Below are positions 118-19,593 of a stretch of 64,000 nucleotides of DNA, piece by piece. A model generated the notes under the pieces. It saw only the letters and a program-made list of their open reading frames with translations, was not told the origin of the DNA and made no database searches. The stretch is taken from the NCBI RefSeq assembly GCF_000304315.1, contig NC_018485.1, forward strand, positions 2,946,501 to 3,010,500, in the 5' to 3' direction. The stretch's first letter is position 1, and each line of letters starts with the position of its first letter. Source of the stretch: Methylocystis sp. SC2 (GTDB taxonomy: Bacteria > Pseudomonadota > Alphaproteobacteria > Rhizobiales > Beijerinckiaceae). Both the position numbers and the translations under genes were made by a program.

Positions 118-300
118 CCAGAATTTTAAGAGCACGTTTCCCCTCGAATCGACAGCCAATGGCGATTGAAGGGCATCATAAGCGAGATTCGCCGGACGAT
201 CGCACCCCTTGCCCGACGCCAGCTTCGCATGATGGGGTTCCTCTCGCGGCCAAGCGCGTTACCTTTCGCGAGGGCGATCGTCGATCTGAGTTCGGCAGGC

Positions 301-4572: not shown

Positions 4573-6324
4573 CTAGAAGGGAAAGTAGCGGAAGCTCGTC
4601 AAGACGGTGTTTTCCGAGCCGTGCGGCGCGCCGCCGACCCCGACGAAGCCGTTGCGAATGATATGGGCGAACTGCACGCCGACTCTGATTTTGCCGGCCG
4701 GTCCCTCGTAGAACGTATGCCAGGCGCCAGTGGTGATTTCGCGTAGCGCGTGGGTCTGCCCGGAACAATTGAAAAGCGGATTGCCGAGCGCGGCGAGCGA
4801 CACGGCTGCGGAGACCCCCAGCGCAGTCTGCGATATCGGATTTTCCAGGCCGCAGCCGATATTGTTATAAAGCGGATTGCCATATCCGCCGGCGAAGATC
4901 GTGCCGTTGACGGCGGCGACCTGCGGATTTTTGCCGGCGATGTCGCCTCCTGCGAATGCAAAAACATCGGTTTGCGGCGTCGGATGCAGCGTTGCGCCGA
5001 CGAGGAGGCTTCGCTGGTAGAGCGGCTGGAGCGCGCCGAAAGCCGAATAGGTCGCGTCGGGAAGCTGACTCGATGCGAGGCGGCCGACGCCGCGTCCGAC
5101 CATGCCCGACACTTGGAATTCCAGGACCTTGGGAATGATCGGGATAATCGCGCCGGCGCCGACGGCGCCAGTCCAGATACGATGATTGCCGAAGTAGAGG
5201 CGCTCGGTCATCTCACGCGCCACCCCGAACGCTTCCAGATGCACCGTGCGGTCGCCTAATGGCGCGTCCCATGCGGCCTTGCCGACGAGATCGGGAAGTC
5301 GATTGAACGAATAAGTGTCCAAGGTGTTGAGCGAGCCGCCGTTCGTCGCCAAGGCGAGTAGAGCGGGCGCGGGGATTCCGAGATTGTTGGGAAGCAGCGT
5401 CGAGACATTGCCGAATGCCGGGCCGGGCGTTGCAAACGTGTTGGCTGATCCTTCAGCGGCGAAGGCCAACCAGAACTGCTTTCCGAAGTCCTTGTAGATG
5501 CGGATGCCAGGGTTTCGGTCCCAGACATAGCCCGGCATATAATTGGGATCGATCGTCGGCGGCTGCAATGACGTATCCGGCCGGGTCCCGAGCGTATTCA
5601 TCGTTACGAGCGACCAGGTCTGACCCGCCGCGAAATGAAGCCCATAATCGTCATTGTCGATATTCGTATAGGCCTGCCGAATGCGAAGATTATACGAGTT
5701 GCTCTGGTTCGCGTTCGCCGTCTGGGCCGCGCCGAGGAAGTCCGTTTCGAAATAGCCCTGGATATGCGTCGTGGGACTGAGATCGCCGCGCACGAGGAGA
5801 GCGGGGCGCGTCGCGCGGGCGCTGAAGTGAAACTCGTCCGTATGCCCCGCTGTCGAGAAGCCATAGGGAATGGCGTTGAAGGGCGTGGCGACGTCGGCGC
5901 CGACCCAGTGGTTGCGCCAGACCGACTCGAGCGCCAGAAAGCCGCCCGGGATGATCTCCAGACCCTTGTAGACGAACTTATCTGGGATTTTCGGAATGGC
6001 GACGGCGGCGGCCGGCGTCAGCGCCGTCCCCCTGACGTTCGCATCGCGAGCATTTGCTGTTTCGGTCCGGCGACGCTCCTGCTCGTCTCGGTCCTTCTTA
6101 TCCATGCGGGCTTTAAGTTGCTTCACCTGAGCAAGGAGCATTTGCAGCTGCTCCTTGTCCGTCATGGCCATCGCGCGATGCGCCGGCAATAGAGCCACGA
6201 CGCCAGCAGCCGTAAGCGCAATCGCCGAACGCTTGACGTCTCTAAGTAAATGGGTCCCCGCGGTTGCGTCGCTCCAGAAGGGTTCAACTCGAAAACAAAC
6301 CTTGGCGCTCTGGCGCATTCGCAT
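4573..6324 (-). CDS. DcaP-like outer-membrane porin with N-terminal coiled coil
   Basis: A 583-residue predicted outer-membrane beta-barrel. The N-terminus has a long signal sequence (hydrophobic core around residues 33-47, AMA-type cleavage), then a short coiled coil (about 55-80, KEQLQMLLAQVKQL...), then a barrel with alternating aromatic strands ending in a C-terminal Phe (YFPF), as expected for barrel insertion. Blocks such as YFETDFLGAAQTAN, RIRQAYTN and GQTWSLVTMNTLG match the DcaP-like trimeric porin family, which transports small anionic solutes in characterised members. ATG 6324 has an AGAGGA site 6 bases upstream. The gene follows the Ehr-like unit in the same direction across 167 bases that contain a hairpin, so it is probably separately transcribed. 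Its substrate is unknown. Confidence 0.75.
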   Translation of the reverse strand: MRMRQSAKVCFRVEPFWSDATAGTHLLRDVKRSAIALTAAGVVALLPAHRAMAMTDKEQLQMLLAQVKQLKARMDKKDRDEQERRRTETANARDANVRGTALTPAAAVAIPKIPDKFVYKGLEIIPGGFLALESVWRNHWVGADVATPFNAIPYGFSTAGHTDEFHFSARATRPALLVRGDLSPTTHIQGYFETDFLGAAQTANANQSNSYNLRIRQAYTNIDNDDYGLHFAAGQTWSLVTMNTLGTRPDTSLQPPTIDPNYMPGYVWDRNPGIRIYKDFGKQFWLAFAAEGSANTFATPGPAFGNVSTLLPNNLGIPAPALLALATNGGSLNTLDTYSFNRLPDLVGKAAWDAPLGDRTVHLEAFGVAREMTERLYFGNHRIWTGAVGAGAIIPIIPKVLEFQVSGMVGRGVGRLASSQLPDATYSAFGALQPLYQRSLLVGATLHPTPQTDVFAFAGGDIAGKNPQVAAVNGTIFAGGYGNPLYNNIGCGLENPISQTALGVSAAVSLAALGNPLFNCSGQTHALREITTGAWHTFYEGPAGKIRVGVQFAHIIRNGFVGVGGAPHGSENTVLTSFRYFPF

Positions 6325-6491: not shown

Positions 6492-7007
6492 TCAGCTCAT
6501 CGTTTCAACGAAGGCGATCAGCCCTTTGAGCAGCGTTGTGGGATCAGGCGGGCAGCCGCGAATATGGAGATCGACCGGGACGACGTTCGCGACGGCGCCC
6601 ACGCATGCGTAGCTCTCGCAATAAACGCCGCCGTCAAAGGCGCAGTCGCCGACGGCGATCACCCATTTCGGATCCGGCGTCGCCGCATAGGTGCGCTCAA
6701 GCGCTTCGCGCATGTTTTTCGTCACCGGCCCGGTGACGAGCAGGACGTCGGCGTGACGCGGCGACGCCACGAAGCGCAGGCCGAATCTCTCGAGATCGTA
6801 ATAGGCGTTGCTCAGCGCGTGGATCTCCAGCTCGCAGCCATTGCAGGAGCCCGCGTCGACTTCGCGGATCGACAGGCTGCGGCCCAGTTTTCGGCGCGCG
6901 GCGCGCCCCAGCGTGTAGCCGAGCTCGGCGATCGACGCCGCATTCGGAATAGGGGCGTGTTCGGTCAGAGCGCGGCGGAGCAAGCCCTGAAGCAAGAATT
7001 TCTGCAT
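6492..7007 (-). CDS. hyfI: NuoB/HyfI-like small Fe-S subunit of the Ehr-like complex
   Basis: A 171-residue homologue of complex I NuoB (PSST) and group 4 hydrogenase small subunits (HycG/HyfI). All four ligands of the proximal [4Fe-4S] (N2-type) cluster are present: C55 and C58 in SCNGCELE, C122 in GDCAFDGG and C152 in RGCPPDP. The cluster-binding core is therefore intact, unlike the partner large subunit. It is the last gene of the unit, 12 bases after hyfG. Expected location is the cytoplasmic arm, docked on HyfG and HyfC. The name follows the family only; a hydrogenase role is not implied. No 2x[4Fe-4S] NuoI/HycF-like subunit accompanies it. Confidence 0.85.
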   Translation of the reverse strand: MQKFLLQGLLRRALTEHAPIPNAASIAELGYTLGRAARRKLGRSLSIREVDAGSCNGCELEIHALSNAYYDLERFGLRFVASPRHADVLLVTGPVTKNMREALERTYAATPDPKWVIAVGDCAFDGGVYCESYACVGAVANVVPVDLHIRGCPPDPTTLLKGLIAFVETMS

Positions 7008-7019
7008 CGCGCGCGAGTC

Positions 7020-8558
7020 CTAGAGATCATGCCCCGAGTAGGAACAGTTGAAGGATTTGTTGCAGAGGGGGAAGTCGGCGACGATGTTGTCCTTGATCGC
7101 CGCTTCGAGCAGCGGCCACTGGAACCAGGACGGATCGCGCAAATGACAGCGCTGCACCACGCCGTCGGCGCGGATGCGCAACCAGACAAATATATCGCCG
7201 CGGAATCCTTCGACGAGCGCGGCGCCTTCGCGCGTCCAGTCCTCCGGCAGCGCCCAGGCGGCGATGGTCGGCCCCTGCGGCGCTTCGTCGAGAATCTGTC
7301 TGACGATTCGCAGCGAGGCTCTGATCTCATCGAACCGGACCCAGACGCGCGCGTCGACGTCGCCTTCCTTCGAGGCGCCGATCTCAAACCTCAGCTGCGA
7401 GTAGGGGGCGTAGCCGATCGCCTTGCGCGCGTCGAATGTCCGGCCGGAGGCGCGTCCGACATAGCCCCCGCAGGCATATTGCTTTGCGAGCGCCTCGCTG
7501 ACGACGCCAGTTCCGACGGTCCGATCCTGCAGCGACGTCGTGTCGCCGAAGAGCGCGATCAGCCGCGGAGTCATGAGTTCGATCCACTCGATCAGCGTGA
7601 AAAGCGCCGTGACGTTCTTTTGCTCCAAATCGACGAGAACGCCGCCCGGCGCGATGCGATCCATCATCAGGCGGTGTCCGAAACAGCTCGCTGCCTCCCT
7701 CAAAATGCGTTCGCGGACGATGCCGCATTGCGCATGCATCAGTGCGAAGGCCGCGTCGTTGCAGATGCCGCCGATATCGCCGAAATGATTGGCGAGCCGT
7801 TCGAGTTCAGCCATCAGCGCGCGCAGATATGTCGCGCGCGGCGGAACTTTGACGTCGAACGCCGCTTCGATCGCCTGCGAAAAGGCGAGGCTATAGGCGA
7901 CCGTGCTGTCGCCGGACACGCGCGCCGCGAGACGCCCGGCGCGCTCCATCGAGGCGCCGGTCATCAGCTGGTCGACGCCCTTGTGAACGAAGCCAAGCCG
8001 CTCCTCAAGCCGCACGACGGTTTCGCCATTGGCTGAAAAGCGGAAGTGGCCGGGCTCGATAATGCCGGCGTGCACGGGTCCGACCGCTATCTGGTGGAGC
8101 GGTTCGCCTTCCGCGGGAAGAAACGCGTAGGCGTCATTGGCGGAGTCGATCGTTTCGGGCGCGCTGCAGGGATGGCGCACGCCCCAGCGGCCATGATCGA
8201 GCCAACGCCGCTCGTCGGGCGCATTTTCGGCTCGCAGGCCATAAAGATCGCGGATCGCGCGCTCGAGCCTCAACGCCGGCGGATGCAATCGCCCGACCGA
8301 TGGAAAGGAGCCTTCAGGGCACTCCAATGTGATGATGCGCAGGCGGGGCTCCCGCTCGTCGAGCACCGCCATGTGAACGCTCGAACTTTCGCCCCAAAGG
8401 CTGAGGAGTTCGCGCTCGCCCGTCACAAGACTTTCGGTAAGAGCGAGCCAGCCAGGTCTGTCGACGATCTCGCGCGGCCAGGGCAGGCATGTCGGCGGCG
8501 ACGGCTGGGCCGCTATCTGTTTGCTGGCGAAGTTCATCTTTTCATCCTTCGAACTCAA
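7020..8558 (-). CDS. hyfG: HyfG/NuoCD-like large subunit lacking NiFe ligands (Ehr type)
   Basis: A 512-residue fusion of a NuoC-like (30 kDa) domain (about 30-150) with a NuoD/hydrogenase large-subunit domain (155-512), as in HycE/HyfG. The characteristic LGFVHKGVDQL block is present. In hydrogenases the next helix carries RxCGxC; here it reads RVSGDSTVAYS (S215, S218). The C-terminal DPCxxC motif is replaced by NCSYSG (504-509), with no Cys at the ligand positions by my alignment to HycE. All four NiFe ligands are thus missing, so H2 chemistry is not expected. This matches the energy-converting-hydrogenase-related (Ehr) group and complex I. It overlaps hyfF by 4 bases (ATGA). A second possible start lies at 8537. 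Confidence 0.85.
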   Translation of the reverse strand: MSSKDEKMNFASKQIAAQPSPPTCLPWPREIVDRPGWLALTESLVTGERELLSLWGESSSVHMAVLDEREPRLRIITLECPEGSFPSVGRLHPPALRLERAIRDLYGLRAENAPDERRWLDHGRWGVRHPCSAPETIDSANDAYAFLPAEGEPLHQIAVGPVHAGIIEPGHFRFSANGETVVRLEERLGFVHKGVDQLMTGASMERAGRLAARVSGDSTVAYSLAFSQAIEAAFDVKVPPRATYLRALMAELERLANHFGDIGGICNDAAFALMHAQCGIVRERILREAASCFGHRLMMDRIAPGGVLVDLEQKNVTALFTLIEWIELMTPRLIALFGDTTSLQDRTVGTGVVSEALAKQYACGGYVGRASGRTFDARKAIGYAPYSQLRFEIGASKEGDVDARVWVRFDEIRASLRIVRQILDEAPQGPTIAAWALPEDWTREGAALVEGFRGDIFVWLRIRADGVVQRCHLRDPSWFQWPLLEAAIKDNIVADFPLCNKSFNCSYSGHDL

Positions 8559-10003
8559 CCCAACAGCCGCGCGACATTCTGGAACCAGGTCACGACGTCA
8601 GAGGGGAGATAGGTTCCCGCCAGCAGCACAAGCGAGAGATGCGCGTAGACAGGCCACATCGAAGCCTTCACCTCGCCTTGGTCGTGGCTTGGCGCGCCGA
8701 ACGCCATCCCGGTGAGCCGCAACAGCAGGGCGCCAAACGCCAGCAGCAGGCCGAAAACCAGCGGAATAGCCAGGAGCGGCTGGCGCGCGAAGGTCGAACT
8801 CACGACGAGAAATTCGCTCATGAAGATGCCCAGCGGCGGCAGGCCGATGATGGCGACGACGCCGGCGACGAGGGACCAGCCGAGCGCCGGCTGGCTCTGC
8901 GTCAGCCCTCTGATGTCGGCGATTCTCTGCGTGCCCTTGACCTGCGCGATGTGACCGACCGAGAAGAAGATCGCGGACTTCGTCAGGCTGTGCATCGTCA
9001 TGTGCAGCAGACCGGCGAAATTGGCGAGCGGTCCGCCCATGCCGAAAGCGAAGGCGATGATGCCCATGTGCTCGATGGAGGAGTAGGCGAACAGCCGCTT
9101 GATGTCGCCGCGGCGGTAAAGCATGAAGGCCGCCATGATGAGAGATGCAAGGCCGAGCGTGATCATCAGCGGGCCTGGCGTAATCGCCGCCGCATTCGCC
9201 GTCAGCAGCATCTTGAACCGCAGCACCGCGTAGAGCGCGACATTGAGCAGGAGTCCGGACAAGACCGCCGAGATCGGCGTCGGGCCTTCCGCATGCGCAT
9301 CCGGAAGCCAGGCGTGCATCGGCGCCAGCCCCACCTTGGTGCCGTAGCCGAGCATCAGGAACACGAAGGCGACGTTGAGCATCCGCGGATTGAACTGCGG
9401 CGCCTGCGACATCAGCGTCTTCCAGACCATGGCGTCATAGCCCTGCCCCAGCACCGGCTCGGCCGCCATGTAAATGAGGATCGTGCCAAAAAGCGCCAGC
9501 GCGATCCCGACGCTGCCGAGGATGAAATATTTCCAAGCGGCCTCGAGCGCATGCGGCGTGCGGTAGATGCCGACCATCAACACGGTCGTCAGGGTCGCGA
9601 CCTCGACCGCGACCCACATGAGGCCGATGTTGCTGGCGAGCAGCGCCAGATTCATCGCGCACATCAGCGACTGATACATCGCGTGATAGAAGCGGACGTT
9701 TTTCGTGGTCAGCCGGCCGGTTTCGATCTCATGATCGATATAGCTCGCGCTATAGACGCTCGTGGTGAAGCCGATGAAGGTCGAGAGCACGACAAAGACG
9801 ATGTTGAGATCATCGACAAAGAGATAGCCGCCGCTTTCGGGCTCGACGACGAGAAGCACAAGCGCGAAGAGAAACGTCGCGCCGGAGGCGCAGAGATTGA
9901 TGATCGCCGAGCGTCGGTAGACCGGTTCAAGCGCGACCGCGATGGCCGCGGCGGCGGGAATGCCCACAAGCGCGTTCGACACCAGCAAAAGATCGGAACT
10001 CAT
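8555..10003 (-). CDS. hyfF: HyfF/NuoN-like antiporter-type membrane subunit
   Basis: A 482-residue polytopic protein of the Mrp-antiporter/NuoLMN family, with about 14 hydrophobic helices. The conserved central block KVGLAPMHAWLPDAH is present, as is the TM5-type acidic site in WVAVEVATL. The TM8 position that is Lys in NuoM is Asn (GLLLNVALY), a state I associate with HyfF-like proteins. It should conduct or gate H+ or Na+ in the membrane arm. It overlaps hyfE by 4 bases and hyfG by 4 bases, consistent with translational coupling. Confidence 0.85.
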   Translation of the reverse strand: MSSDLLLVSNALVGIPAAAAIAVALEPVYRRSAIINLCASGATFLFALVLLVVEPESGGYLFVDDLNIVFVVLSTFIGFTTSVYSASYIDHEIETGRLTTKNVRFYHAMYQSLMCAMNLALLASNIGLMWVAVEVATLTTVLMVGIYRTPHALEAAWKYFILGSVGIALALFGTILIYMAAEPVLGQGYDAMVWKTLMSQAPQFNPRMLNVAFVFLMLGYGTKVGLAPMHAWLPDAHAEGPTPISAVLSGLLLNVALYAVLRFKMLLTANAAAITPGPLMITLGLASLIMAAFMLYRRGDIKRLFAYSSIEHMGIIAFAFGMGGPLANFAGLLHMTMHSLTKSAIFFSVGHIAQVKGTQRIADIRGLTQSQPALGWSLVAGVVAIIGLPPLGIFMSEFLVVSSTFARQPLLAIPLVFGLLLAFGALLLRLTGMAFGAPSHDQGEVKASMWPVYAHLSLVLLAGTYLPSDVVTWFQNVARLLG

Positions 10004-10662
10004 GAACGTCCTCCACGCACGCGATCGAGTTCAGAAAGGTCGACGTTGTCGAATCGCTCGCGGATGCGGAACAGGAAGATGCCGATCACGATGAAGGCGA
10101 TGAGAATGGAAAATGCGACGCTGATCTCGACGACGAGCGGCATGCCGTTCGCCCCCGCCGCCGCCAAAACCAGACCATTTTCCAGCGACATGAAGCCGAT
10201 AATCTGGCTCACGACGTTGCGCCGCGTCACCATCATCAACAGCCCCAGCAGCACGATCGCCAAGGCGAATGCGATGTCCTCGCGCGACAGCGGATCGGCG
10301 GAGGCGGTCGCCGGCAGCATGACGACGAGCGACAGCGCCACGAGAAATATGCCGATAAGCATGGTGACGCCGACGCCGCCAACGACCTCCACGGTGCGGT
10401 GGATGCCCAAGCGCTTGATGATTCGGCGGAGGCTGAAGGGAATGATCAGCGCCTTGAAGATCGCCGCGATGGCGGCCGTTAGATAGAGATGATGTGCGTC
10501 CTGGTAATAGGCCTGCCAGGCGACCGACAGCGACAGAATGACGGCGTGGAGCGTGTAGATATTGATGAGCCCCGACAGTCGGTCCTGATACAGCAGCATG
10601 AAGCTCGTCAGCAGGAGCGCGCCCGCCAGCACATGGGCGATGTCGATTGTCAAAAGCTCCAT
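10000..10662 (-). CDS. hyfE: HyfE/NuoK-like membrane subunit
   Basis: A 220-residue membrane protein with six or seven hydrophobic helices. The C-terminal half resembles NuoK/MnhC, with the conserved acidic residue in GFMSLENGL. The N-terminal half is the HyfE-specific extension. The frame is open to 10824, but the start is placed at ATG 10662 because it shares one base with the hyfC stop (TGATG), a classic coupling arrangement, and because the residues upstream are hyfC read out of frame. Confidence 0.85.
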   Translation of the reverse strand: MELLTIDIAHVLAGALLLTSFMLLYQDRLSGLINIYTLHAVILSLSVAWQAYYQDAHHLYLTAAIAAIFKALIIPFSLRRIIKRLGIHRTVEVVGGVGVTMLIGIFLVALSLVVMLPATASADPLSREDIAFALAIVLLGLLMMVTRRNVVSQIIGFMSLENGLVLAAAGANGMPLVVEISVAFSILIAFIVIGIFLFRIRERFDNVDLSELDRVRGGRS

Positions 10663-11615
10663 CAGAGACTCCGTGTCACAAAAACGAGCAGCGTCGCGAG
10701 GAGGCCAAGCATCAGCCCCGCGCCGAGAAAGTCGGGAACGCGGAAGATGCGCATCTTGGCCGTGGTCGTCTCGAACAGCGCAAGCGCGCCGCCGCCGATC
10801 GCCAGCTTCAGGACGTAAGCGCAAAGCCCAATCATCATCGCTTTTGCGCCCGCGTCATGCGAGGCGAGCCCAACGGGGAAAAAGACGCAGGCGATGAGCG
10901 AGAGATAAAGGAGCAGCTTGAGCGCCGAGGCGAGTTCAATGAGCGCGAGATAGCGCCCGGAATATTCGAGAACCATCGCCTCATGCACCATCGTCAGCTC
11001 GAGATGGGTCGCCGGATTATCGACGGGGATCCGTCCATTCTCTGCGATGGCGACGATGAGGAGCGCAACGAGCGCCATCCCCACCGAGGCGCGCAATTCC
11101 AGATTTCCGGCCATATAGGCCGCAATTTCAGAGAGCTGCGTCGTTCCGGCGACAAACGAGACGGTGAAGACGATCATCATCATCGCCGGCTCCGCGAGCG
11201 AGCCGAACATCGCCTCGCGGCTTGAGCCGATGCCGCCAAAACTCGTTCCAATGTCCATGCCGGCGAGCGCAAGGAAAAAACGGGCGCTGCCGAGCAGGGC
11301 GATGATGGCGATGAGATCGGCCGACCAGCTGAACGTCAGTCCCGTGGCGAACGTCGGCACGAGCGATGCGGCGACCCATGTCATCGCGAAGATGAGATAG
11401 GGCGCAGCGCGGTAAAGCCACGAAGCATTCTCGGCGAGGACGACGTCCTTGCGCAGCAACCGGATGAGATCGCGCCAGGGTTGGATGATCGGCGGCCCTT
11501 TGCGGCGCAAGAGGCGCGCCTTCAGCTTTCGAAGGAAGCCGATAAGCAGCGGCGCGAGCGCAAGCACCAAAAGCATTTGGACGCTCTGCGCCAGGATGTT
11601 GAAAAGAAGCGTCAT
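10662..11615 (-). CDS. hyfC: HyfC/NuoH-like membrane subunit
   Basis: A 317-residue polytopic protein of the NuoH/HycD/HyfC family, which links the peripheral Fe-S arm to the ion-translocating arm. The hallmark ENGRIPVDNPATHLEL segment followed by MVHEAMVLEYSG is intact, and the N-terminal RRKGPPIIQPWRDLI block matches the family. Eight hydrophobic segments are visible. It overlaps hyfB by 4 bases upstream and hyfE by 1 base downstream. The acidic residues implicated in coupling in the family are kept, so the membrane arm looks functional even though HyfG lacks its metal site. Confidence 0.88.
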   Translation of the reverse strand: MTLLFNILAQSVQMLLVLALAPLLIGFLRKLKARLLRRKGPPIIQPWRDLIRLLRKDVVLAENASWLYRAAPYLIFAMTWVAASLVPTFATGLTFSWSADLIAIIALLGSARFFLALAGMDIGTSFGGIGSSREAMFGSLAEPAMMMIVFTVSFVAGTTQLSEIAAYMAGNLELRASVGMALVALLIVAIAENGRIPVDNPATHLELTMVHEAMVLEYSGRYLALIELASALKLLLYLSLIACVFFPVGLASHDAGAKAMMIGLCAYVLKLAIGGGALALFETTTAKMRIFRVPDFLGAGLMLGLLATLLVFVTRSL

Positions 11616-13609
11616 ATCGCCACCAGGACCAGGAGGAAGACGAGCGCCGCGAAAACCAGCGCGAGATATTCCTGGATCGTCAGGAGACTGAGGATGTTCA
11701 GCCCGGCGGCGCAGGACTCAACCGCCCGCGTGAGCGGCGCATAGAGATAGTCGAAGATCCGATCCTTGATGTCGACGCTCAAGCGCGCCGCCCGCGTATC
11801 GCCAGGCGCGGGCATGTCGAGGCGCTCCCGCACCGAAAAGGCGATGACGCCAAGGGTGCGCCGGATCGGCTGCGCGAAGCTGCTGCCTGTGTATTGCGTC
11901 ATGGGGCTGGTTTCGATGAAGCCGCAGTCCCAGGCCGGCGCGCGCCGCGACCGCGTCGCGCCAAATTTGTGGATGACCCATCTCGCCGAATACGCGGAGA
12001 AGAGAATGAACACGAAGACCAGAAGCCCATTGTAGGAGCTGCGGCTTTCGGCGATCGGCGCGATCGAGAGCCAGGAGAGTTCAGCCTGCGTCGGCATGCG
12101 GCCGCCGACAAAATCTTTCGCCACGGGCGAGATCGTGTCGATGAGGAGGCTCGGCAGCAGACCGGCCGTGAGGCACAGCGTCAGCAAAACCGCCATGGTC
12201 GCGAGCGACCAGCGATCCGGGTCGTGCGCCGCGCGCGCCGCTTCGCTGCGGGGGCGCCCTAGAAAAGCGACGCCATAAGCGCGTATGTAACAGCCCGCGC
12301 CGAGCGCCGCGCTCAGCGCCAGCGCCACGCCGACCGCCGGAACGAGGAGCTTCACGGTCCATTGCGGCAGCGCGGGGCTCAGCAGGATCGCCTGAAAGAC
12401 CAGCCATTCCGAGACGAAGCCGTTCAGCGGCGGCAGGGCGGCGATGGCGACGCAGCCGCCGAGAAAAAAGACCGCCGTTTTCGGCATGGCGTGAATAAGA
12501 CCGCCGAGGCGTTCGATGCTTCTTTCGCCGCTCGCGTTCAATACCGCGCCGGCGCCAAAAAACAGCAGGCTCTTGAACAGTGAATGATTGAAAACGTGAA
12601 AGAGCGCGGCAGTGAAGGCGAGCGCGGCCGGCAGCGCCATGCCATTGGCCTTGAACGCCAAGGCAAGACCGAGCGCGATGAAGATGATGCCGATGTTCTC
12701 GATGGTGCTGTAGGCGAGCAGCCTCTTCAGATCGCTCTGAATCGTCGCGAAGAGAACGCCGATGAGGGCGCTCGCCGCGCCAAAGCTCATCGGCTCGATC
12801 GACCACCAGAAGGCGGGCGGGCCGAGCAAATCGAACACGACGCGAATGAAGCCGTAGACGGCGACCTTCGTCATAACGCCGCTCATCAGCGCCGATACGT
12901 GGCTCGGCGCCGCGGGATGGGCGAGCGGGAGCCAGATATGCAAGGGCGCGAGTCCGGCCTTGGATCCCATGCCGACGATCGCGAGAGCCAGGACGAGGCC
13001 CGCCTTCCATCCCTCCTTGGTTGACTCGCGAATCGAGGCGAAGTCATAGGCGCCGCCGACGCCGCCAAGAATGCCGAACGCCATCAGCAGCGCAAAACCG
13101 CCGAAGCTCGCCATCAACAAATAGACGAAGCCGGCGCGCCTGTTCTCCTCCTCATGATGATGCGTCAGCACGAGCGCCCATGAAGCAAGCGACATGAACT
13201 CCCAGGCGACGAGAAAGGTGAAGGCGTCGTCGGCCAGCACGACGAGGTTCATGCCAGCGAGAAAAGCTGGATAGAACGGCAGCACGCGCATCGGCTCTTT
13301 CTCATGCGCGCCATAGCCGATCGCATAAGCGCTGGCCGCCGCGCCGCCCAGATTGACGACCGCGAGAAAAAAGGCGGTCAGGACGTCGATGCGAAAATGC
13401 ATGCCGATCCACGGCAGTCCGAGCGGCAAGGCCGTCGAAACGACGTGAGCGCCCCTCGGCATGACCGCAGCGAGGAAGAGAACGCCGCAGAGGCCGATGC
13501 AAAAGCGGTAGACGTTTCGGCTGACGTCGTGGTTCCGCCTGTCGACTATCGCGTAGATGCTGACGGCGAGCAGGGCGCTGACACAAGTCAGCGCGAGGTA
13601 GAGCGGCAT
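11612..13609 (-). CDS. hyfB: HyfB/NuoL-like antiporter-type membrane subunit
   Basis: A 665-residue polytopic member of the NuoL/NuoM/MrpA family and the second gene of the unit. The TM5 Glu (VAWEFMSLASW), TM7-type Lys (KAGLAPLHIWLP) and TM8 Lys (SGVMTKVAVYG) of the proton path are all present. The C-terminus carries extra helices and a HyfB-like soluble loop (around residues 530-640). A GTG lies at 13618, but ATG 13609 has the better spaced AAAGG site. Fifty-odd bases separate it from the SulP stop, compatible with co-transcription. DabB of DAB inorganic-carbon systems is in the same superfamily, but no DabA (DUF2309) gene is nearby. Confidence 0.85.
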   Translation of the reverse strand: MPLYLALTCVSALLAVSIYAIVDRRNHDVSRNVYRFCIGLCGVLFLAAVMPRGAHVVSTALPLGLPWIGMHFRIDVLTAFFLAVVNLGGAAASAYAIGYGAHEKEPMRVLPFYPAFLAGMNLVVLADDAFTFLVAWEFMSLASWALVLTHHHEEENRRAGFVYLLMASFGGFALLMAFGILGGVGGAYDFASIRESTKEGWKAGLVLALAIVGMGSKAGLAPLHIWLPLAHPAAPSHVSALMSGVMTKVAVYGFIRVVFDLLGPPAFWWSIEPMSFGAASALIGVLFATIQSDLKRLLAYSTIENIGIIFIALGLALAFKANGMALPAALAFTAALFHVFNHSLFKSLLFFGAGAVLNASGERSIERLGGLIHAMPKTAVFFLGGCVAIAALPPLNGFVSEWLVFQAILLSPALPQWTVKLLVPAVGVALALSAALGAGCYIRAYGVAFLGRPRSEAARAAHDPDRWSLATMAVLLTLCLTAGLLPSLLIDTISPVAKDFVGGRMPTQAELSWLSIAPIAESRSSYNGLLVFVFILFSAYSARWVIHKFGATRSRRAPAWDCGFIETSPMTQYTGSSFAQPIRRTLGVIAFSVRERLDMPAPGDTRAARLSVDIKDRIFDYLYAPLTRAVESCAAGLNILSLLTIQEYLALVFAALVFLLVLVAI

Positions 13610-13671
13610 TCTTGTCACCTTTCAGTCGACGTGGCCTTCGTCGGTCGACCTTGCCCGAGACGCTCAGGGAC

Positions 13672-15462
13672 TCAGGCGGCGCGCTTGCGCGGCGCGAGAG
13701 GATGCTTTGACGTCGCGACGTGTTGATCCAATCCGCAAATCTCTGCGCGGCCGCCATTTGCTTCATAGTCCTCGCAAAAGTGATGAAGGTTCTCCATCAC
13801 CGTATGGTCGACGCACCAGGATTCCGAGAGATCAAAGATGACCGTCTTCCCCTTTGGGAGCTTTGCGAGGTCGCCCTTAAGCGCGAGGTAGTTGGCGAAG
13901 AAGGCCGCGCCGCCGATTTTGACCTGATAGACGCCGGGCGCGCTCTCCACGATGTCGCGACGCAGCTTGAAGACCTGTCCCCAATTGACGCTCCGCCAGA
14001 AGTGGAACAGGAACTCGGCGGCGATGCCGATGGCGACGCCGATAAGCAGGTCCGTCGCCAGCACGCCGACGATGGTAATCACGAAGACGGCAAGCTGGTC
14101 CCAGCCGATCGCCAGCGTCTTCTTGAACTCGAGCGGCGACGCAAGTCGGTAGCCGGTGAACACCAGCAGCGCTGCAAGCGAGGCAAGCGGGATCTCGTGA
14201 ATCACCCTCGGGAAAAGCGCGACGAAGATCAGCAGGAACAGTCCGTGAAAGAAATTCGCCCATCCCGTGCGCGCGCCATTATTCACATTGGCGGAGCTGC
14301 GGACGATTTCCGCGATCATCGGCAGACCGCCAATCAGGCCGCAGATGATATTGCCGAAGCCGACCGCCGCGACGTCGCGGTTGAGATCCGAGGTGCGCTT
14401 ATAGGGATCGAGCTTATCCACCGCCGCGGCGCTGAGCAGGCTCTCCAGGCTGCCAACGAGACAGATGGCGAAGACCTGCTGCCAGAACAGACCGGTGCGG
14501 ATCATCGAGAAATCGGGAAAGGCGAAGCCCGAAAGGAAGTTCTGGGGGATGGAGACCAGAAATTTCGGACCGATCGTGAATTCATGATGCGGCAGGAACG
14601 GAGTGTCCGGCAGGAACAGATAGATATGTTCGTCGTCGAGATCGAAATATTGCGCGAGCGCCATGCCGATGATCACGACGACAAGCGGCGCAGGGATCAT
14701 TTTCAGTCGGCGATTCTTCACCAGCGACCAGGCGATCAGGATCAAGAGCCCGATGCCGCCGATGATGGCGACTTCCGGATTCATGTCGCGAAGGCTTGCG
14801 GGAATCGCGCCAATCGTTGCGAACAGAGTCTGCGCATCCGGCTTCACGCCGAGCATGACGTGTATCTGCTTGGCCATGATGATGATGCCGATCGCCGCCA
14901 ACATGCCATGGACGGCCGACGACGGAAAAAAGGCGCTCATCTTGCCGGCTTTCATGATGCCCATCAGCATCTGAATGACGCTGGCGCATACGATCGCCGC
15001 CAGGGTGTAGTGATAGCCGGCTTTGGCGTCGCCGCCGCCGAGCGCCTGCACCGAGTCCAGAATGACCACGATGAGGCCTGCCGCCGGACCCATGATGGTG
15101 ACGAAGGAGCCATCGATCCGCGACACCAGCAGGCCGCCGACGACGGCGGTGATGATGCCCGCCTGAGGCGGAAAGCCCGACGCCATCGAAATGCCGAGGC
15201 ATAGCGGCAGCGCGATAAGAAAGACCAGAAAGCCGGACAGAATGTCGGCGCGCCAATTTTCGGCCAATCCGGCGAGGCCGGTCTTCGGCGTGAACCGGGT
15301 TGGAATCGTCCCTGCGGGATTTGAGCTATTCTCATCCATGGCGGGCCCAACGAGGTCCGCGCCCTGCCATTCTTGCGACGATGAACTGGGGCGGTGAGAG
15401 GCGCTCGCCTCCGTTGCAACCGCCTCGATGTCGTGGGTGACAGCCTGAGCCTTGCTTTTCAT
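13672..15462 (-). CDS. SulP-family anion permease with C-terminal STAS domain
   Basis: A 596-residue SulP/SLC26 transporter. After a polar N-terminal tail of about 75 residues comes the membrane domain (about 80-470) with SulP landmarks such as LPLCLGISMASGFPP, SIDGSF-like and GFGNIICGLIGGLP. The C-terminal STAS domain (about 485-580) includes TVIFDLSES. Bacterial SulP proteins carry sulfate, bicarbonate or other anions, and sequence alone does not decide between them. ATG 15462 has an AAGGA site 6 bases upstream and is preferred to a TTG at 15477. It is the promoter-proximal gene of the Ehr-like unit and diverges from the two-component genes. Confidence 0.88.
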   Translation of the reverse strand: MKSKAQAVTHDIEAVATEASASHRPSSSSQEWQGADLVGPAMDENSSNPAGTIPTRFTPKTGLAGLAENWRADILSGFLVFLIALPLCLGISMASGFPPQAGIITAVVGGLLVSRIDGSFVTIMGPAAGLIVVILDSVQALGGGDAKAGYHYTLAAIVCASVIQMLMGIMKAGKMSAFFPSSAVHGMLAAIGIIIMAKQIHVMLGVKPDAQTLFATIGAIPASLRDMNPEVAIIGGIGLLILIAWSLVKNRRLKMIPAPLVVVIIGMALAQYFDLDDEHIYLFLPDTPFLPHHEFTIGPKFLVSIPQNFLSGFAFPDFSMIRTGLFWQQVFAICLVGSLESLLSAAAVDKLDPYKRTSDLNRDVAAVGFGNIICGLIGGLPMIAEIVRSSANVNNGARTGWANFFHGLFLLIFVALFPRVIHEIPLASLAALLVFTGYRLASPLEFKKTLAIGWDQLAVFVITIVGVLATDLLIGVAIGIAAEFLFHFWRSVNWGQVFKLRRDIVESAPGVYQVKIGGAAFFANYLALKGDLAKLPKGKTVIFDLSESWCVDHTVMENLHHFCEDYEANGGRAEICGLDQHVATSKHPLAPRKRAA

Positions 15463-15660
15463 AGTTCGTCCTTGCAATCGCGCTCAATCGAAACCTTGGC
15501 GCCGATCGGTTAGCGCGGCCGCAACATAGGACAGGCCAGTGGCTGTGATGTTTCTCCAGTTTTTCAGGCCACAGAGATTATTTCTGATTCTTTTCCCAAA
15601 TCCGACGAGATCAGACCAGACCTATTGAAGCGCCGCGGGACAGCGCCCTTTTTTCTGATG

Positions 15661-15679
15661 GAAACACTCTAGAAACACT
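15661..15679. promoter_or_regulatory. Direct repeat, candidate response-regulator operator
   Basis: GAAACACT occurs twice, at 15661-15668 and 15672-15679, with an 11-base period. That is one helical turn, the usual layout for OmpR-family dimers. It lies in the 264-base divergent region between sulP and the regulator gene, 48 bases before the regulator's start. Autoregulation and control of sulP are inferred from position. Confidence 0.4.
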
Positions 15680-15726
15680 GCATTATTAGGTTTCGACGAG
15701 CACCAACGAAAGCGACAGCGCCTCCC

Positions 15727-16446
15727 TTGACCCCTTCCATTTCAATTCTGATCGTCGAGGACGACGCCGAAATCGGCGAGTTCATCTCCCTCTATCTCGC
15801 GGCGCATGATATCGAGACAAAGGTGGCGGCGAACGCCCAGGCGATGGACGCCGCGTTCAGCGCCGGGGCCTATGACCTGCTGATCCTCGATCTTAATCTT
15901 CCCGGCGAAGACGGATTGTCGATCTGCCGGCGGGTGCGATCCGAGAGACGCATCCCTATAATCATCCTGACGGCGCAGTCGGAGGACATCGACAAGATAT
16001 TGGGTCTGGAGCTCGGGGCCGACGATTACATCGTCAAGCCTTTCAATTCGCGCGAGCTGCTGGCGCGCATCCGCGCCGTGCTGAGGCGAACGGAGCCCCC
16101 GAACGCCGTCGACGGGCGCGCTGGGCGGCAAGCGTATCTTTTTTCGGGCTGGCGCGTCGATGTGCTCGCTCGAGAGGTCGTCGCGCCTTGCGGCATAAAG
16201 GTGGCCATGACCGGCGCAGAATTCGATCTGCTGCATGCCTTGTGCGAAAATCCCAATCGGGTGCTGACGCGTGAGCAGCTGATCAACATGACGCATGGCC
16301 CGACGACCGGACCCTTCGAGCGCAGCATCGACGTGCTGATCAGCCGGCTTCGCCAGAAGATCGAGGCGGATCCAAAAAAGCCTGCGTTCATCCAGACGGT
16401 TCGCTCCGAGGGCTACATTTTCTCCACTCACGTGGCGCGCGCATGA
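15727..16446 (+). CDS. OmpR-family response regulator
   Basis: A 239-residue response regulator. The receiver domain (5-118) has acidic pocket E11-D12-D13, phospho-acceptor D55 (LILDLNLPG), and K104 in the IVKPF loop. The winged-helix DNA-binding domain (135-235) has the typical LTREQLI and SIDVLISRLRQKI helices. The only available start is a TTG at 15727; an in-frame stop lies 55 bases upstream with no ATG or GTG between, and there is no clear ribosome site, so translation may be weak. It overlaps the kinase gene by 4 bases. It is divergent from the SulP-Ehr operon, its most likely target. Confidence 0.85.
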   Translation: MTPSISILIVEDDAEIGEFISLYLAAHDIETKVAANAQAMDAAFSAGAYDLLILDLNLPGEDGLSICRRVRSERRIPIIILTAQSEDIDKILGLELGADDYIVKPFNSRELLARIRAVLRRTEPPNAVDGRAGRQAYLFSGWRVDVLAREVVAPCGIKVAMTGAEFDLLHALCENPNRVLTREQLINMTHGPTTGPFERSIDVLISRLRQKIEADPKKPAFIQTVRSEGYIFSTHVARA

Positions 16447-17882
16447 ACCCTACTCGCGTTCCCTGGCGTTTCCGGCTCAACAAGCTGGCCGTGCAAATCA
16501 CGCTGCTGATCTTCGTGTCGATCGTGGCGTTCCAGACCATCGTTATCGGCATGTTCCATGTGTTCGGCAGGCGGCACATCGTCGACCAAGGCGATTTCAT
16601 CGCGAGCATCATTCTCGCTTTGGACGTGGCCCCGCTCTCGGAGAGAGCCGATGTCATTTCAGCGCTTTCTCACGCCGTTCCCTACGCCAGCATCGAGATT
16701 CAGGAGTCGCGCCCGGCGGCGGCGACGTCTTCGACGGGCGGCGGCGATCTCGCCTTTGAAAACGAAATCCGCCACATCGACTCGCTGTTGTGGGACGGCG
16801 CAGACGTGTTCGAGGTCGAAAGTTCACCGCCTGGAGATTACGGCGTCCTCGCCGTCGAATTGCATAAGGGCGGCTATGCGACGGTCTCGATCGCCGAGCA
16901 TCAAAAATCTCCCGGTTCGATATGGCGATGGCTTTGGCAGCATGCCGATGACGAACCGTTCATCCTGACTCAGGGCGCGCGAACGGCGCTGTCCTTTATC
17001 ATATTCACGGCGATCTTCGTGTTCTGGGCGCTGAACGCGATCATGGCGCCGCTGCGACGGCTTGCAAAATATGCTGAGCAGATTCCGAACGATGTCGATA
17101 CGAAAGCGCAGCTCCCGGAGCGAGGTCCCCAGGAAGTTCGCGAATTGACCCGCTCGCTCAATCGCATGCAGGCGCGCATCAGCAAGATGATCGCCGCGCG
17201 CGCCCATGTGCTTGCGTCCGTCAGCCATGACTTGCGAACGATCATCACGCGCTTGAAGCTGAAAACCGAGTTCGTGTCGGATCAAAACCTGCAGCAGCGG
17301 ATGATGCGCGACGTCGATCTCATGGACGCAATGCTGTTCAAGAATCTGCAGTATTTGCGCGCCGAGGGAGACGACAAATCCGACTGTTCGCTGGTCGATC
17401 TCGATAGCGTTCTGCAAACTGTCGCGGACGAGTTCTGCGACCTCGGGCATCATGTGACCTACCATGGCGGCGGGCGCCAGATGGTCTTCGGATCGCTTTG
17501 CGACGTGCAGCGCATTTTCACCAATCTCGTCGAAAACGCGACGCATCACGCGAAGACAGTGGACATCTACATCGCGGATGGCCCGGGAGGGCTCATCCAG
17601 GTCGACGTCGTCGATGACGGACCGGGAATGTCAGCGGATGGCAAGAGCACTGCATTCGAGCCCTTCGTTCGCGGTCAGCCGGGACGAACGCTCGACGAGC
17701 ACAGCGGATTTGGACTCGGCCTGTCGATTGTGCGCTCGCTCGTCGACAACCATGGCGGAACCGTGTCGCTGCTCGATCGAGAGCCCAACGGGCTGATCGC
17801 GCGCGTCTGTCTGCCCCGCGCGGCGGAAGGGGACGATAGGCTGGGTTCGACCGACTTCAAGGCGGCGCCGGCGCTCTTCTGA
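16443..17882 (+). CDS. EnvZ-like membrane sensor histidine kinase
   Basis: A 479-residue kinase. One membrane segment at about residues 18-42 and another at about 180-200 bracket a periplasmic sensor region of roughly 140 residues. A HAMP linker follows, then a HisKA domain with H262 in VSHDLRT and an HATPase domain with N-box NLVENATHHA, G1 DDGPGMS and G2 GFGLGLSIV. It is translationally coupled to the regulator (ATGA). The periplasmic region matches no ligand-binding fold I recognise. Given the divergent operon, an anion, pH or energy-state cue is possible but unproven. Confidence 0.85.
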   Translation: MNPTRVPWRFRLNKLAVQITLLIFVSIVAFQTIVIGMFHVFGRRHIVDQGDFIASIILALDVAPLSERADVISALSHAVPYASIEIQESRPAAATSSTGGGDLAFENEIRHIDSLLWDGADVFEVESSPPGDYGVLAVELHKGGYATVSIAEHQKSPGSIWRWLWQHADDEPFILTQGARTALSFIIFTAIFVFWALNAIMAPLRRLAKYAEQIPNDVDTKAQLPERGPQEVRELTRSLNRMQARISKMIAARAHVLASVSHDLRTIITRLKLKTEFVSDQNLQQRMMRDVDLMDAMLFKNLQYLRAEGDDKSDCSLVDLDSVLQTVADEFCDLGHHVTYHGGGRQMVFGSLCDVQRIFTNLVENATHHAKTVDIYIADGPGGLIQVDVVDDGPGMSADGKSTAFEPFVRGQPGRTLDEHSGFGLGLSIVRSLVDNHGGTVSLLDREPNGLIARVCLPRAAEGDDRLGSTDFKAAPALF

Positions 17883-18513: not shown

Positions 18514-19593
18514 ATGGGAGAAGGCATGGTCACGTTTCTCAGCGCGCGAGATATCGCCCGCATCGTTGGAGAAGTGGGCGCGCGACGCTTTTGGCTGCGG
18601 CTCGTCGACGATCTGCGTCGCGACTTTATCCGCTGGGACGCGTTCGAGAAGTCGCCGCGCTACGCGAGCCATTCGCCGCGCGGCGTCATCGAACTGATGC
18701 CGACGAGCGACGGCGAGGCTTTCGCCTTCAAATTCGTCAACGGTCATCCCGGCAACGCGCGCTTCAACCTCCAGACCGTCGTCGCCTTCGGTGCTCTCGC
18801 CGACGTCGACACCGGCTATCCGACGCTCATCGCCGACATGACGCTCGCCACCGCCTTCCGGACCGGCGCGACCTCGGCTCTGGCGGCGGCGCATCTCGCG
18901 CGACCCGACAGCAAGACGATGGCGCTGATCGGTCTTGGCGCCCAATCGGAGTTTCAGGCGTGCGCCTTTCACGCCGTTCTCGGCGTCGACCAGCTTCGTA
19001 TCTTCGATGTCGACCCTCGCGCCGTCGAGAAGTTCGAGCGCAACATGGCGGACTTCGGCCTAACGATCATTCGGTGCGCCGACGCGCGCAGCGCCGCATC
19101 CGGCGCGGACATCATCACGACCATCACGGCGGATAAGAAATTCGCCACGATACTCGCCGACGACATGGTTCAGCCGGGAACCCATATCAACGCGGTCGGC
19201 GGCGACTGCCCAGGCAAGACCGAGCTTGCGCGGGAACTGCTGCTGCGTTCCGAAATCTTCGTCGAATATGCGCCGCAGACGCGCGGCGAGGGCGAAATTC
19301 AGCAACTCGACCCGGAACATCCGGTGACGGAGCTGCGGGAGATTCTTGCGGGTCATCGACCGGGGCGCTCCTCCAAAGACGCGATCACGATCTTCGACAG
19401 CGTCGGTTTCGCCATCGAGGATTTTTCGGTGTTGCGCCTGTTGCGCGATCTTGCGCGGGAGACCGGCGTCGGGCGCGCGATCGAACTGATCGCGGAGCCG
19501 ACTGACCCGAAGGATCTGTTCTCGCTGCTGCATCCGCTCGACGCGGAGCAGGAAGACGTCGCAACCCGCGTAAGGATGGAACAGCCCGCATGA
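18514..19593 (+). CDS. Ornithine cyclodeaminase family protein
   Basis: A 359-residue OCD/mu-crystallin family enzyme. Ornithine cyclodeaminase converts L-ornithine to L-proline and ammonia with NAD+. Visible features are the substrate-side RGVIELMPTSDGEAFAFK region, the TAFRTGATSALAA helix, and a Rossmann NAD motif GLGAQSEFQ with an acidic end (FDVD). The NAVGGDCPGKTEL segment carries the Asp expected at the catalytic site. The length is typical of the longer OCD branch. Two starts are possible: ATG 18514 (GAGG at 5 bases) and ATG 18526 (GGGAG at 5 bases). It overlaps the next gene by 4 bases. The next gene's product would supply ornithine, which favours true OCD activity over alanine dehydrogenase or related activities. 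Confidence 0.8.
   Translation: MGEGMVTFLSARDIARIVGEVGARRFWLRLVDDLRRDFIRWDAFEKSPRYASHSPRGVIELMPTSDGEAFAFKFVNGHPGNARFNLQTVVAFGALADVDTGYPTLIADMTLATAFRTGATSALAAAHLARPDSKTMALIGLGAQSEFQACAFHAVLGVDQLRIFDVDPRAVEKFERNMADFGLTIIRCADARSAASGADIITTITADKKFATILADDMVQPGTHINAVGGDCPGKTELARELLLRSEIFVEYAPQTRGEGEIQQLDPEHPVTELREILAGHRPGRSSKDAITIFDSVGFAIEDFSVLRLLRDLARETGVGRAIELIAEPTDPKDLFSLLHPLDAEQEDVATRVRMEQPA

What the first reader, a model, noticed from the sequence alone, without database searches (positions are those of the whole stretch)
6492..15462. SulP transporter heading a hydrogenase-4-like complex operon with no hydrogenase
Seven co-directional, mostly overlapping genes encode SulP plus HyfB, C, E, F, G and I homologues. 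The membrane arm keeps its coupling residues (NuoH-like ENGRIPVD, NuoL-like Glu/Lys path) and HyfI keeps all four N2-cluster Cys. There is no ferredoxin-like NuoI/HycF subunit, no NiFe maturation gene and no formate dehydrogenase. An ion-translocating Ehr-type machine physically tied to an anion transporter (bicarbonate or sulfate) would be a new functional pairing, conceptually near DabAB inorganic-carbon pumps, which also use a NuoL-like subunit.
Basis: partly seen in the sequence, partly recalled or inferred. Interest (0 to 1): 0.82.

Follow-up and report, generated by a model that had tools for sequence, protein, structure and literature searches.

The report
Anion transporter leading a hydrogenase-like complex
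In Methylocystis methane-eating bacteria, a probable bicarbonate transporter gene has replaced the regulator gene in front of a widespread complex that looks like a hydrogenase but lacks the metal site, which gives a new handle on what this unexplained complex does.

Summary
On the minus strand, SulP and HyfB, C, E, F, G, I run co-directionally (15462-6492). HyfG has none of the four NiFe cysteines; HyfI keeps its four cluster cysteines; the membrane arm keeps its coupling residues; no HyfA- or HyfH-like ferredoxin subunit is present.

The six-gene complex is not new. It is the Hyq/Ehr type, described as an "endo-hydrogenase" in Azorhizobium (hyqRBCEFGI) and elsewhere as an Ehr complex of unknown function. 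In 96 homologous rows the former NiFe site is a different, conserved pocket (S-G-D; N-K-S-F-N), and 30 of 55 genomes with the complex show no HypD. So most are probably not NiFe hydrogenases.

What is new is the SulP lead gene. It heads the operon in 29 of 39 Methylocystis genomes, is near none of 68 homologous loci outside the genus, traces to one clade (support 100), and goes with absence of the usual small regulator gene. Beyond its own small group, its nearest relatives are SulPs beside carbonic anhydrase, so bicarbonate is likelier than sulfate. SulP also occurs alone, so it is probably a co-regulated partner, not a subunit. Function remains inferred.

The parts
13672..15462 (-). SulP family anion transporter (PF00916), weak C-terminal STAS-like domain; lead gene
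   Evidence: PF00916 204.3 bits; STAS 21.7 bits, cut-off 22.6; tree
11612..13618 (-). HyfB/HyqB, antiporter-like subunit (GTG start)
   Evidence: NF005086 829.6 bits, over cut-off 667; coupling residues
10662..11615 (-). HyfC/HyqC, NuoH-like subunit
   Evidence: PF00146; closest solved relative 7z0s_D (formate hydrogenlyase subunit 4)
10000..10662 (-). HyfE/HyqE, small membrane subunit (Oxidored_q2-like)
   Evidence: Below curated cut-offs: NF008556 91.1 bits (cut-off 136), PF00420 24.2 bits (cut-off 26.1); scanned with a slightly longer start
8555..10003 (-). HyfF/HyqF, antiporter-like subunit
   Evidence: NF005043 832.3 bits, over cut-off 533; coupling residues
7020..8558 (-). HyfG/HyqG, fused NuoC/NuoD-like subunit without NiFe ligands; conserved S215-G216-D217 and N500-K501-S502-F503-N504 in their place
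6492..7007 (-). HyfI/HyqI, NuoB-like subunit with the four [4Fe-4S] cysteines
15463..15726 (.). intergenic region between divergent sulP and response-regulator gene; no NifA (TGT-N10-ACA) or sigma-54 (TGGC-type) match on the sulP strand
15727..16446 (+). divergent OmpR-like response regulator (candidate regulator of the operon)
   Evidence: divergent RR beside SulP in 19 of the 24 SulP-headed loci that are not cut there
16443..17882 (+). EnvZ-like histidine kinase, likely partner of the response regulator

Best explanation
The operon encodes a Hyq/Ehr-type complex: a six-subunit relative of complex I and formate hydrogenlyase that keeps an intact-looking ion-translocating membrane arm and one [4Fe-4S] cluster site, but has a conserved non-NiFe pocket where a hydrogenase has its metal site. 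In one ancestor within Methylocystis, the small helix-turn-helix gene in front of it (the counterpart of hyqR by position) was replaced by a SulP transporter related to the carbonic-anhydrase-linked kind, and control probably passed to the divergent OmpR/EnvZ-like pair. Most likely the two are made together and cooperate through the ion gradient: SulP takes up an anion, most likely bicarbonate (for the serine cycle, since the host has no RuBisCO), while the complex moves H+ or Na+ to pay for or balance that uptake, in response to an envelope signal such as pH, salt or low CO2. Shown: gene content, motifs, one clade, retention. Inferred: co-transcription, bicarbonate, direction of ion movement, electron donor, signal.
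For: Same six genes and order as hyqBCEFGI (PMC2650096, PMC3357923; sections read). 0 of 97 Hyq rows (96 plus the window; about 30 are from one genus, so not independent) have the four NiFe Cys, while D217, K501, N504, G509 and D511 are 97/97. Coupling residues are conserved in 83-93 relatives. SulP heads the operon in 29 of 39 genomes of the genus; the 23 SulP-headed rows of the tree are one clade, support 100; from SulP stop to the start of the HyfB match is 15-197 bp in 26 of 26 loci. The small regulator gene was found in 0 of 26 SulP-headed and 26 of 74 other loci. After Methylomagnum and Persicobacter, the nearest plasmid SulPs (34-37%) have a beta-CA gene next door in 6 of 6 examined (of 8 listed), as do both other SulPs of this genome. 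The SulP scores 251-287 bits against these six and own SulP3 (161 against a piece of own SulP2), and 110 against E. coli DauA.
Against: SulP pairing is seen in one genus only; three Methylocystis genomes have the operon without SulP, and SulP also occurs alone beside unrelated genes. No carbonic anhydrase hit in the window or in the homologous loci, nor beside the two nearest relatives outside the genus, Methylomagnum and Persicobacter. The paper that defines the CA-linked clade says it is not fused to STAS (passages), whereas this SulP has a near-threshold STAS match. No transcript or protein data. SulP substrate cannot be settled by sequence: it is far below the cut-offs of the BicA and DauA models. 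Genetics in Azorhizobium link the orthologous operon to H2 (PMC2650096, PMC3357923).
Confidence: 0.5

Rival explanations
1. It is a true H2-reacting 'endo-hydrogenase' (H2:quinone oxidoreductase) with an unknown catalytic site, used to recycle H2 from nitrogenase, as claimed for Azorhizobium Hyq; SulP is incidental.
For: hyq deletion slowed diazotrophic growth by about a fifth and changed H2 balance in A. caulinodans (PMC2650096 section read; PMC3357923 sections). The host has two nifH. Hyq co-occurs with nifH: 15 of 55 vs 27 of 342 genomes; 16 of 38 vs 14 of 193 genera.
Against: No row among 97 has the NiFe ligands (the 2012 paper itself calls a NiFe site unlikely). 30 of 55 Hyq genomes show no HypD and 40 of 55 no nifH at the cut-offs used. 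No NifA/sigma-54 pair before any of the loci scanned, though Azorhizobium itself was not among them as a positive control. Ehr of N. moscoviensis not raised by H2 (passage in PMC12342949).
Confidence: 0.15
2. Promoter or operon capture without functional link: SulP happened to land at the head of the operon and stays because separating them would break expression.
For: One clade in one genus; each part exists without the other.
Against: No loss of SulP inside the SulP-headed clade: 23 of 23 rows in the tree, although HyfG identity to the window drops to 65-70% in its deeper members.
Confidence: 0.22
3. SulP is a subunit of, or directly docked on, the complex, making an energy-coupled bicarbonate pump comparable to DabAB or NDH-1MS.
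For: Close, conserved linkage in one clade; Hyq co-occurs with RuBisCO: 31 of 55 vs 50 of 342 genomes, 19 of 38 vs 23 of 193 genera; hyf next to a beta-CA gene in At. caldus (passage in PMC3826726).
Against: SulP absent from all 68 loci fetched outside the genus; this host has neither a RuBisCO nor a DabA match; solo SulPs exist.
Confidence: 0.08
4. SulP is an ordinary sulfate transporter and the pairing reflects sulfur demand.
For: Pfam family name is Sulfate permease; that many SulPs carry sulfate is recalled.
Against: Nearest relatives outside its own group are CA-linked SulPs.
Confidence: 0.05

Closest known systems
Azorhizobium caulinodans hyqRBCEFGI 'endo-hydrogenase' (PMC2650096, PMC2930871, PMC3357923)
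   Same: Same six structural genes and order, same lack of CxxC NiFe ligands in HyqG, HyqI with four cluster Cys; HyqG Cys258/491/497 fit C266/C499/C505 here (a constant shift of 8; the Azorhizobium sequence was not fetched).
   Different: hyqR is replaced by SulP; no NifA/sigma-54 match; divergent OmpR/EnvZ-like pair.
Ehr (energy-converting hydrogenase related) complexes
   Same: Group-4-like subunits and Mrp-like antiporter subunits without NiFe ligands.
   Different: Ehr is a loose class; some were proposed to work with formate dehydrogenase, and Mbx with ferredoxin (PMC6349859, passages). None of the passages I read reports a SulP gene in such an operon.
E. coli formate hydrogenlyase / hydrogenase 4 (7z0s, HyfA-J)
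   Same: Best solved relatives of HyfC and HyfG by sequence; best fold match of HyfG is 7z0s_E (TM 0.77/0.74). For HyfI the FHL subunit 7z0s_G is second, after MbhJ 6cfw_J.
   Different: No NiFe Cys; no HyfA or HyfH homologue in the window and only two antiporter-like genes, so no separate HyfD. HyfJ and HyfR were not searched for.
CA-linked SulP transporters (clade C of PMC6458275, passages)
   Same: Closest SulP group outside methanotrophs and Persicobacter; shared ALPLCLGI and VRSSAN motifs.
   Different: Window SulP has no adjacent CA, has a longer N-terminus and a near-threshold STAS match, and forms a separate clade.
DabAB / DAB2 (PMC13144422, abstract and outline seen)
   Same: Both use complex I-like proton-conducting membrane subunits.
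   Different: No DabA match in this genome; different partner protein.

Membership tests
Group 4 [NiFe] hydrogenase (Hyf/Hyc) | Four NiFe-ligating Cys in the large subunit | tested here: not met
   S215, S218, S506, G509 at the Cys columns; 3 true hydrogenase rows in the same alignment read CCCC
Group 4 [NiFe] hydrogenase (Hyf/Hyc) | HyfA- and HyfH-type ferredoxin subunits | tested here: not met
   tblastn with E. coli HyfA/HyfH: none in window
Hyq/Ehr complex | Group-4-like large subunit without NiFe ligands | tested here: met
Hyq/Ehr complex | Antiporter-like and NuoH-like membrane subunits with coupling residues | tested here: met
Hyq/Ehr complex | NuoB-like subunit with four cluster Cys | tested here: met
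Hyq/Ehr complex | HyqG three conserved Cys reported in 2012 | tested here: met
   C266, C499, C505 in the window; of 100 other rows of that alignment 91, 66 and 84 have Cys there, so the feature is not universal
hyq operon of Azorhizobium (operon layout, not the complex) | hyqR regulator first, NifA box and sigma-54 promoter | tested here: not met
SulP transporter family | Sulfate_transp domain over cut-off | tested here: met
   204.3 bits vs 23.2
SulP transporter family | STAS domain | tested here: inconclusive
   21.7 bits vs cut-off 22.6
BicA bicarbonate transporter | NF050096 cut-off | tested here: not met
   119.2 bits vs 880
CA-linked SulP (bicarbonate) | beta-CA gene next to SulP | tested here: not met
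   No CA hit in the window or in the hyf loci; the works-like claim rests on nearest relatives
DAB complex | DabA (PF10070) | tested here: not met
Any of the above | Ion pumping, substrate, physical association | not testable with these tools
   Needs bench work

The most novel reading that the evidence does not exclude
Hyq/Ehr complexes are a third family of energy-coupled inorganic-carbon machines: the conserved S-G-D / N-K-S-F-N pocket at the old NiFe site binds CO2 or bicarbonate rather than H2, ion flow through the complex I-like arm drives its one-way conversion, and in Methylocystis a SulP has been wired in as the dedicated bicarbonate port.
Probability: 0.06. Interest if true: 0.92.

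Novelty: new variant of a known kind. Interest (0 to 1): 0.52.

Why it matters
HyfG relatives of this kind were found in 55 of 397 sampled Pseudomonadota genomes, and a 2025 paper finds Ehr complexes in about half of its Nitrospirales genomes and calls their function unknown (passage); the one genetic study I found calls them hydrogenases although the metal ligands are missing. A clade in which the complex is tied to a named kind of transporter, and a list of invariant residues in the former active site, turn an open question into simple tests: bicarbonate versus sulfate versus H2, in methanotrophs that can be grown.

Tried and rejected
Nif regulon: scanned up to 900 bp upstream of sulP or, where there is no SulP, of hyfB for TGT-N10-ACA and TGGC-type sigma-54 sites (consensus recalled, not from a call). 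In the loci the two never occurred together; single matches are scattered. I rejected conserved NifA control, with the caveat that no positive control was in the set.

Recurrent neighbours: clustering of neighbouring ORFs gave small regulators (XRE-like by eye; the Rhizobium johnstonii record annotates its copy as a helix-turn-helix regulator; another XRE-cupin-like type in 12 loci, 11 of them family f41) but no recurrent carbon-fixation gene by eye; a carbonic anhydrase search found none in the hyf loci. That weakens a general Ehr-DIC link, although genome-level co-occurrence with RuBisCO is strong. That co-occurrence is not corrected for phylogeny beyond counting by genus, and nifH is as strong by genus.

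RuBisCO count: 101 genomes matched at E<=1e-50. I kept 81 (strong matches, plus two cut by contig ends, G171 and G234) and dropped 20 at the strength of RuBisCO-like proteins.

Structure: the HyfG model (mean pLDDT 72.2) gives the expected fold but is below 50 in the pocket loops, so I drew nothing about pocket geometry. The model of the downstream outer-membrane-like protein (mean pLDDT 27.3) was not used.

Solo SulP neighbours: unrelated genes by eye (for example an adenosylhomocysteinase-like protein, not scanned); no clue.

Rows dropped: L134, L136, L137 (true hydrogenase type) and L135 (divergent, about 31%) were left out of the 96 Hyq rows; short fragments were left out when the alignments were built. 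G121, one of 52 further places, was not fetched. Of the 68 loci outside the genus, 13 have less than 2.5 kb before hyfB or no hyfB match. Of the 8 plasmid SulPs at 34-37%, H3 and H6 were not examined.

Tree is FastTree with no bootstrap; the SulP tree flags long branches and its deep splits are unsure.
Full report
What is there. Seven genes lie head to tail on the minus strand, from SulP (start 15462) to HyfI (end 6492). The hyf genes B to G overlap by a few bases each, HyfG and HyfI are 12 bp apart, and SulP is 53 bp from HyfB with no promoter-like or terminator-like match around the gap. A divergent OmpR/EnvZ-like pair starts at 15727. HyfB and HyfF pass the NCBIfam cut-offs for hydrogenase-4 subunits; HyfC, HyfG and HyfI match NuoH-, NuoC/D- and NuoB-type families; HyfE matches only below cut-off. 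No molybdopterin oxidoreductase, HypD or E. coli HyfA/HyfH homologue lies in the window.

Host. The genome has two nifH, two HypD, several NiFe hydrogenase matches elsewhere, no RuBisCO match and no DabA match.

The complex. By sequence the best solved relatives of HyfG and HyfC are E. coli formate hydrogenlyase subunits; for HyfI they are MbhJ (1.3e-36) and then the formate hydrogenlyase subunit (1.9e-35). The HyfG model's best fold match is the formate hydrogenlyase large subunit 7z0s_E. The four NiFe cysteines of E. coli HyfG (C243, C246, C517, C520) are S215, S218, S506 and G509 here. In 96 homologous rows plus the window none has the four Cys (three rows have one), and new residues are nearly invariant instead: S215 95/97, G216 95/97, D217 97/97, D495, F496, P497, K501, S502, N504, G509, D511 97/97, N500 96/97, F503 95/97. 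These rows include about 30 from one genus, so they are not independent; the 25-row alignment shows the same residues. HyfI keeps C55, C58, C122, C152; those columns are Cys in 97, 97, 97 and 96 of the 97 other rows. In HyfB, HyfC and HyfF the charged residues of the ion path (assignment recalled) are conserved in 83, 90 and 93 rows and mostly shared with E. coli Hyf. E. coli HyfA finds only three true hydrogenase loci and E. coli itself; HyfH finds those, L135, and two loci (L046, L161) that carry a second, different cluster. So the membrane motor looks intact, no electron-input subunit is encoded, and the metal site has become something else.

Prior art. This six-gene set is hyqBCEFGI of Azorhizobium caulinodans (PMC2650096: abstract and three sections read; PMC3357923: abstract and sections 5, 7 and the first part of 8; PMC2930871: abstract and one section). 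There a deletion slowed growth on N2 and altered H2 balance, and the authors called it an endo-hydrogenase while noting that HyqG lacks the CxxC motifs and that its catalytic site is speculative. Others call such complexes Ehr, of unknown function (passages in PMC12342949, PMC6349859, PMC6688271), and the At. ferrooxidans hyfBCEFGI cluster was judged non-hydrogenase (passage in PMC7735108). At. caldus has a hyf cluster beside a beta-CA gene (passage in PMC3826726). The founding Ehr paper (Marreiros 2013) I saw only in a reference list.

How widespread. HyfG relatives at E<=1e-60: 55 of 397 sampled Pseudomonadota and 32 of 39 genomes of the genus; in the family sample of 119, 13 places outside the genus are 57-65% identical. 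Of the 55 genomes, 15 have nifH, 25 HypD, 31 RuBisCO; in the other 342 the numbers are 27, 64 and 50. By genus the odds ratios are 9.3 (nifH), 4.0 (HypD) and 7.4 (RuBisCO). The 30 of 55 without HypD argue against a NiFe enzyme; the nifH and HypD associations are points for the hydrogenase view and are reported as such.

The SulP lead gene. In the genus, 29 of 39 genomes have SulP directly before hyfB; 3 have hyf without SulP (G089, G516, G514); 1 cannot be judged (G521, contig end); 6 show no hyf (some are incomplete), 2 of them with a solo SulP. None of 68 loci outside the genus has SulP in the stretch fetched; 55 of them have at least 2.5 kb before hyfB. On a tree of HyfB+F+G the 23 SulP-headed rows form one clade, support 100. 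The small helix-turn-helix gene, the counterpart of hyqR by position, is found in 0 of 26 SulP-headed and 26 of 74 other loci. So SulP most likely replaced the regulator once, and was kept.

What SulP carries. Closest plasmid-borne relatives are in Methylomagnum (55%) and Persicobacter (45%), with no CA hit in the stretches fetched, then eight 34-37% relatives. Of those eight I examined six, and a beta-CA gene sits beside SulP in all six; it also sits beside both other SulPs of this genome. A published tree places CA-linked SulPs with a bicarbonate transporter, and says that clade lacks STAS (passages in PMC6458275); the near-threshold STAS match here is a point against. Bicarbonate is the better guess, no more. 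That PEP carboxylase of the serine cycle uses bicarbonate is recalled knowledge.

Literature on the pairing. Searches for SulP with hyfB and bicarbonate, SulP with hydrogenase-4 and inorganic carbon, Methylocystis with hydrogenase-4 terms, and SulP with Methylocystis (zero papers) gave no report of a SulP-hyf operon in the listings and passages I saw. This covers open-licence PubMed Central only.

Verdict. The complex is a member of the Hyq/Ehr kind; the operon is a new variant, SulP-headed, of Methylocystis. Functional pairing by co-expression is the best reading (0.5); a physical machine is possible but has no support beyond linkage.

Noticed in passing
window 4573-6324 (-); L004:12325-14073: An outer-membrane-protein-like gene (by eye) follows the operon on the same strand. 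In L004 it is Porin_O_P (PF07396, 130.6 bits), in the window and in L094-L096 a different protein; the window's has no Pfam match.
   Followed up: partly
L119 (G531 second copy), L118 and L116 (G504): Two genomes carry a second hyq copy without SulP before it; in G531 it is followed by SulP fragments and the response regulator gene, in G504 most of the second copy's front genes give no match.
   Followed up: partly
L030, L160, L178, L181: Two hyfB-like genes in tandem at the head of the operon.
   Followed up: no
L134, L136, L137: Distant family members (about 30%) are true hydrogenase type with four NiFe Cys and a HyfA homologue.
   Followed up: partly
G000:C1:3305378-3306514 and 1209821-1210927 (L210, L211): Both other SulP genes of the host lie beside a beta-carbonic anhydrase gene.
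   Followed up: yes
L199 (Methylomagnum ishizawai plasmid): The nearest SulP found outside Methylocystis (55%) is on a plasmid a few genes after genes annotated amoABC.
   Followed up: no
window 18514-20546 (+): Ornithine cyclodeaminase-like and dimethylarginine dimethylaminohydrolase-like genes side by side.
   Followed up: no
window 166-2601 (+): PAS/GAF sensor with HWE histidine kinase domain.
   Followed up: no
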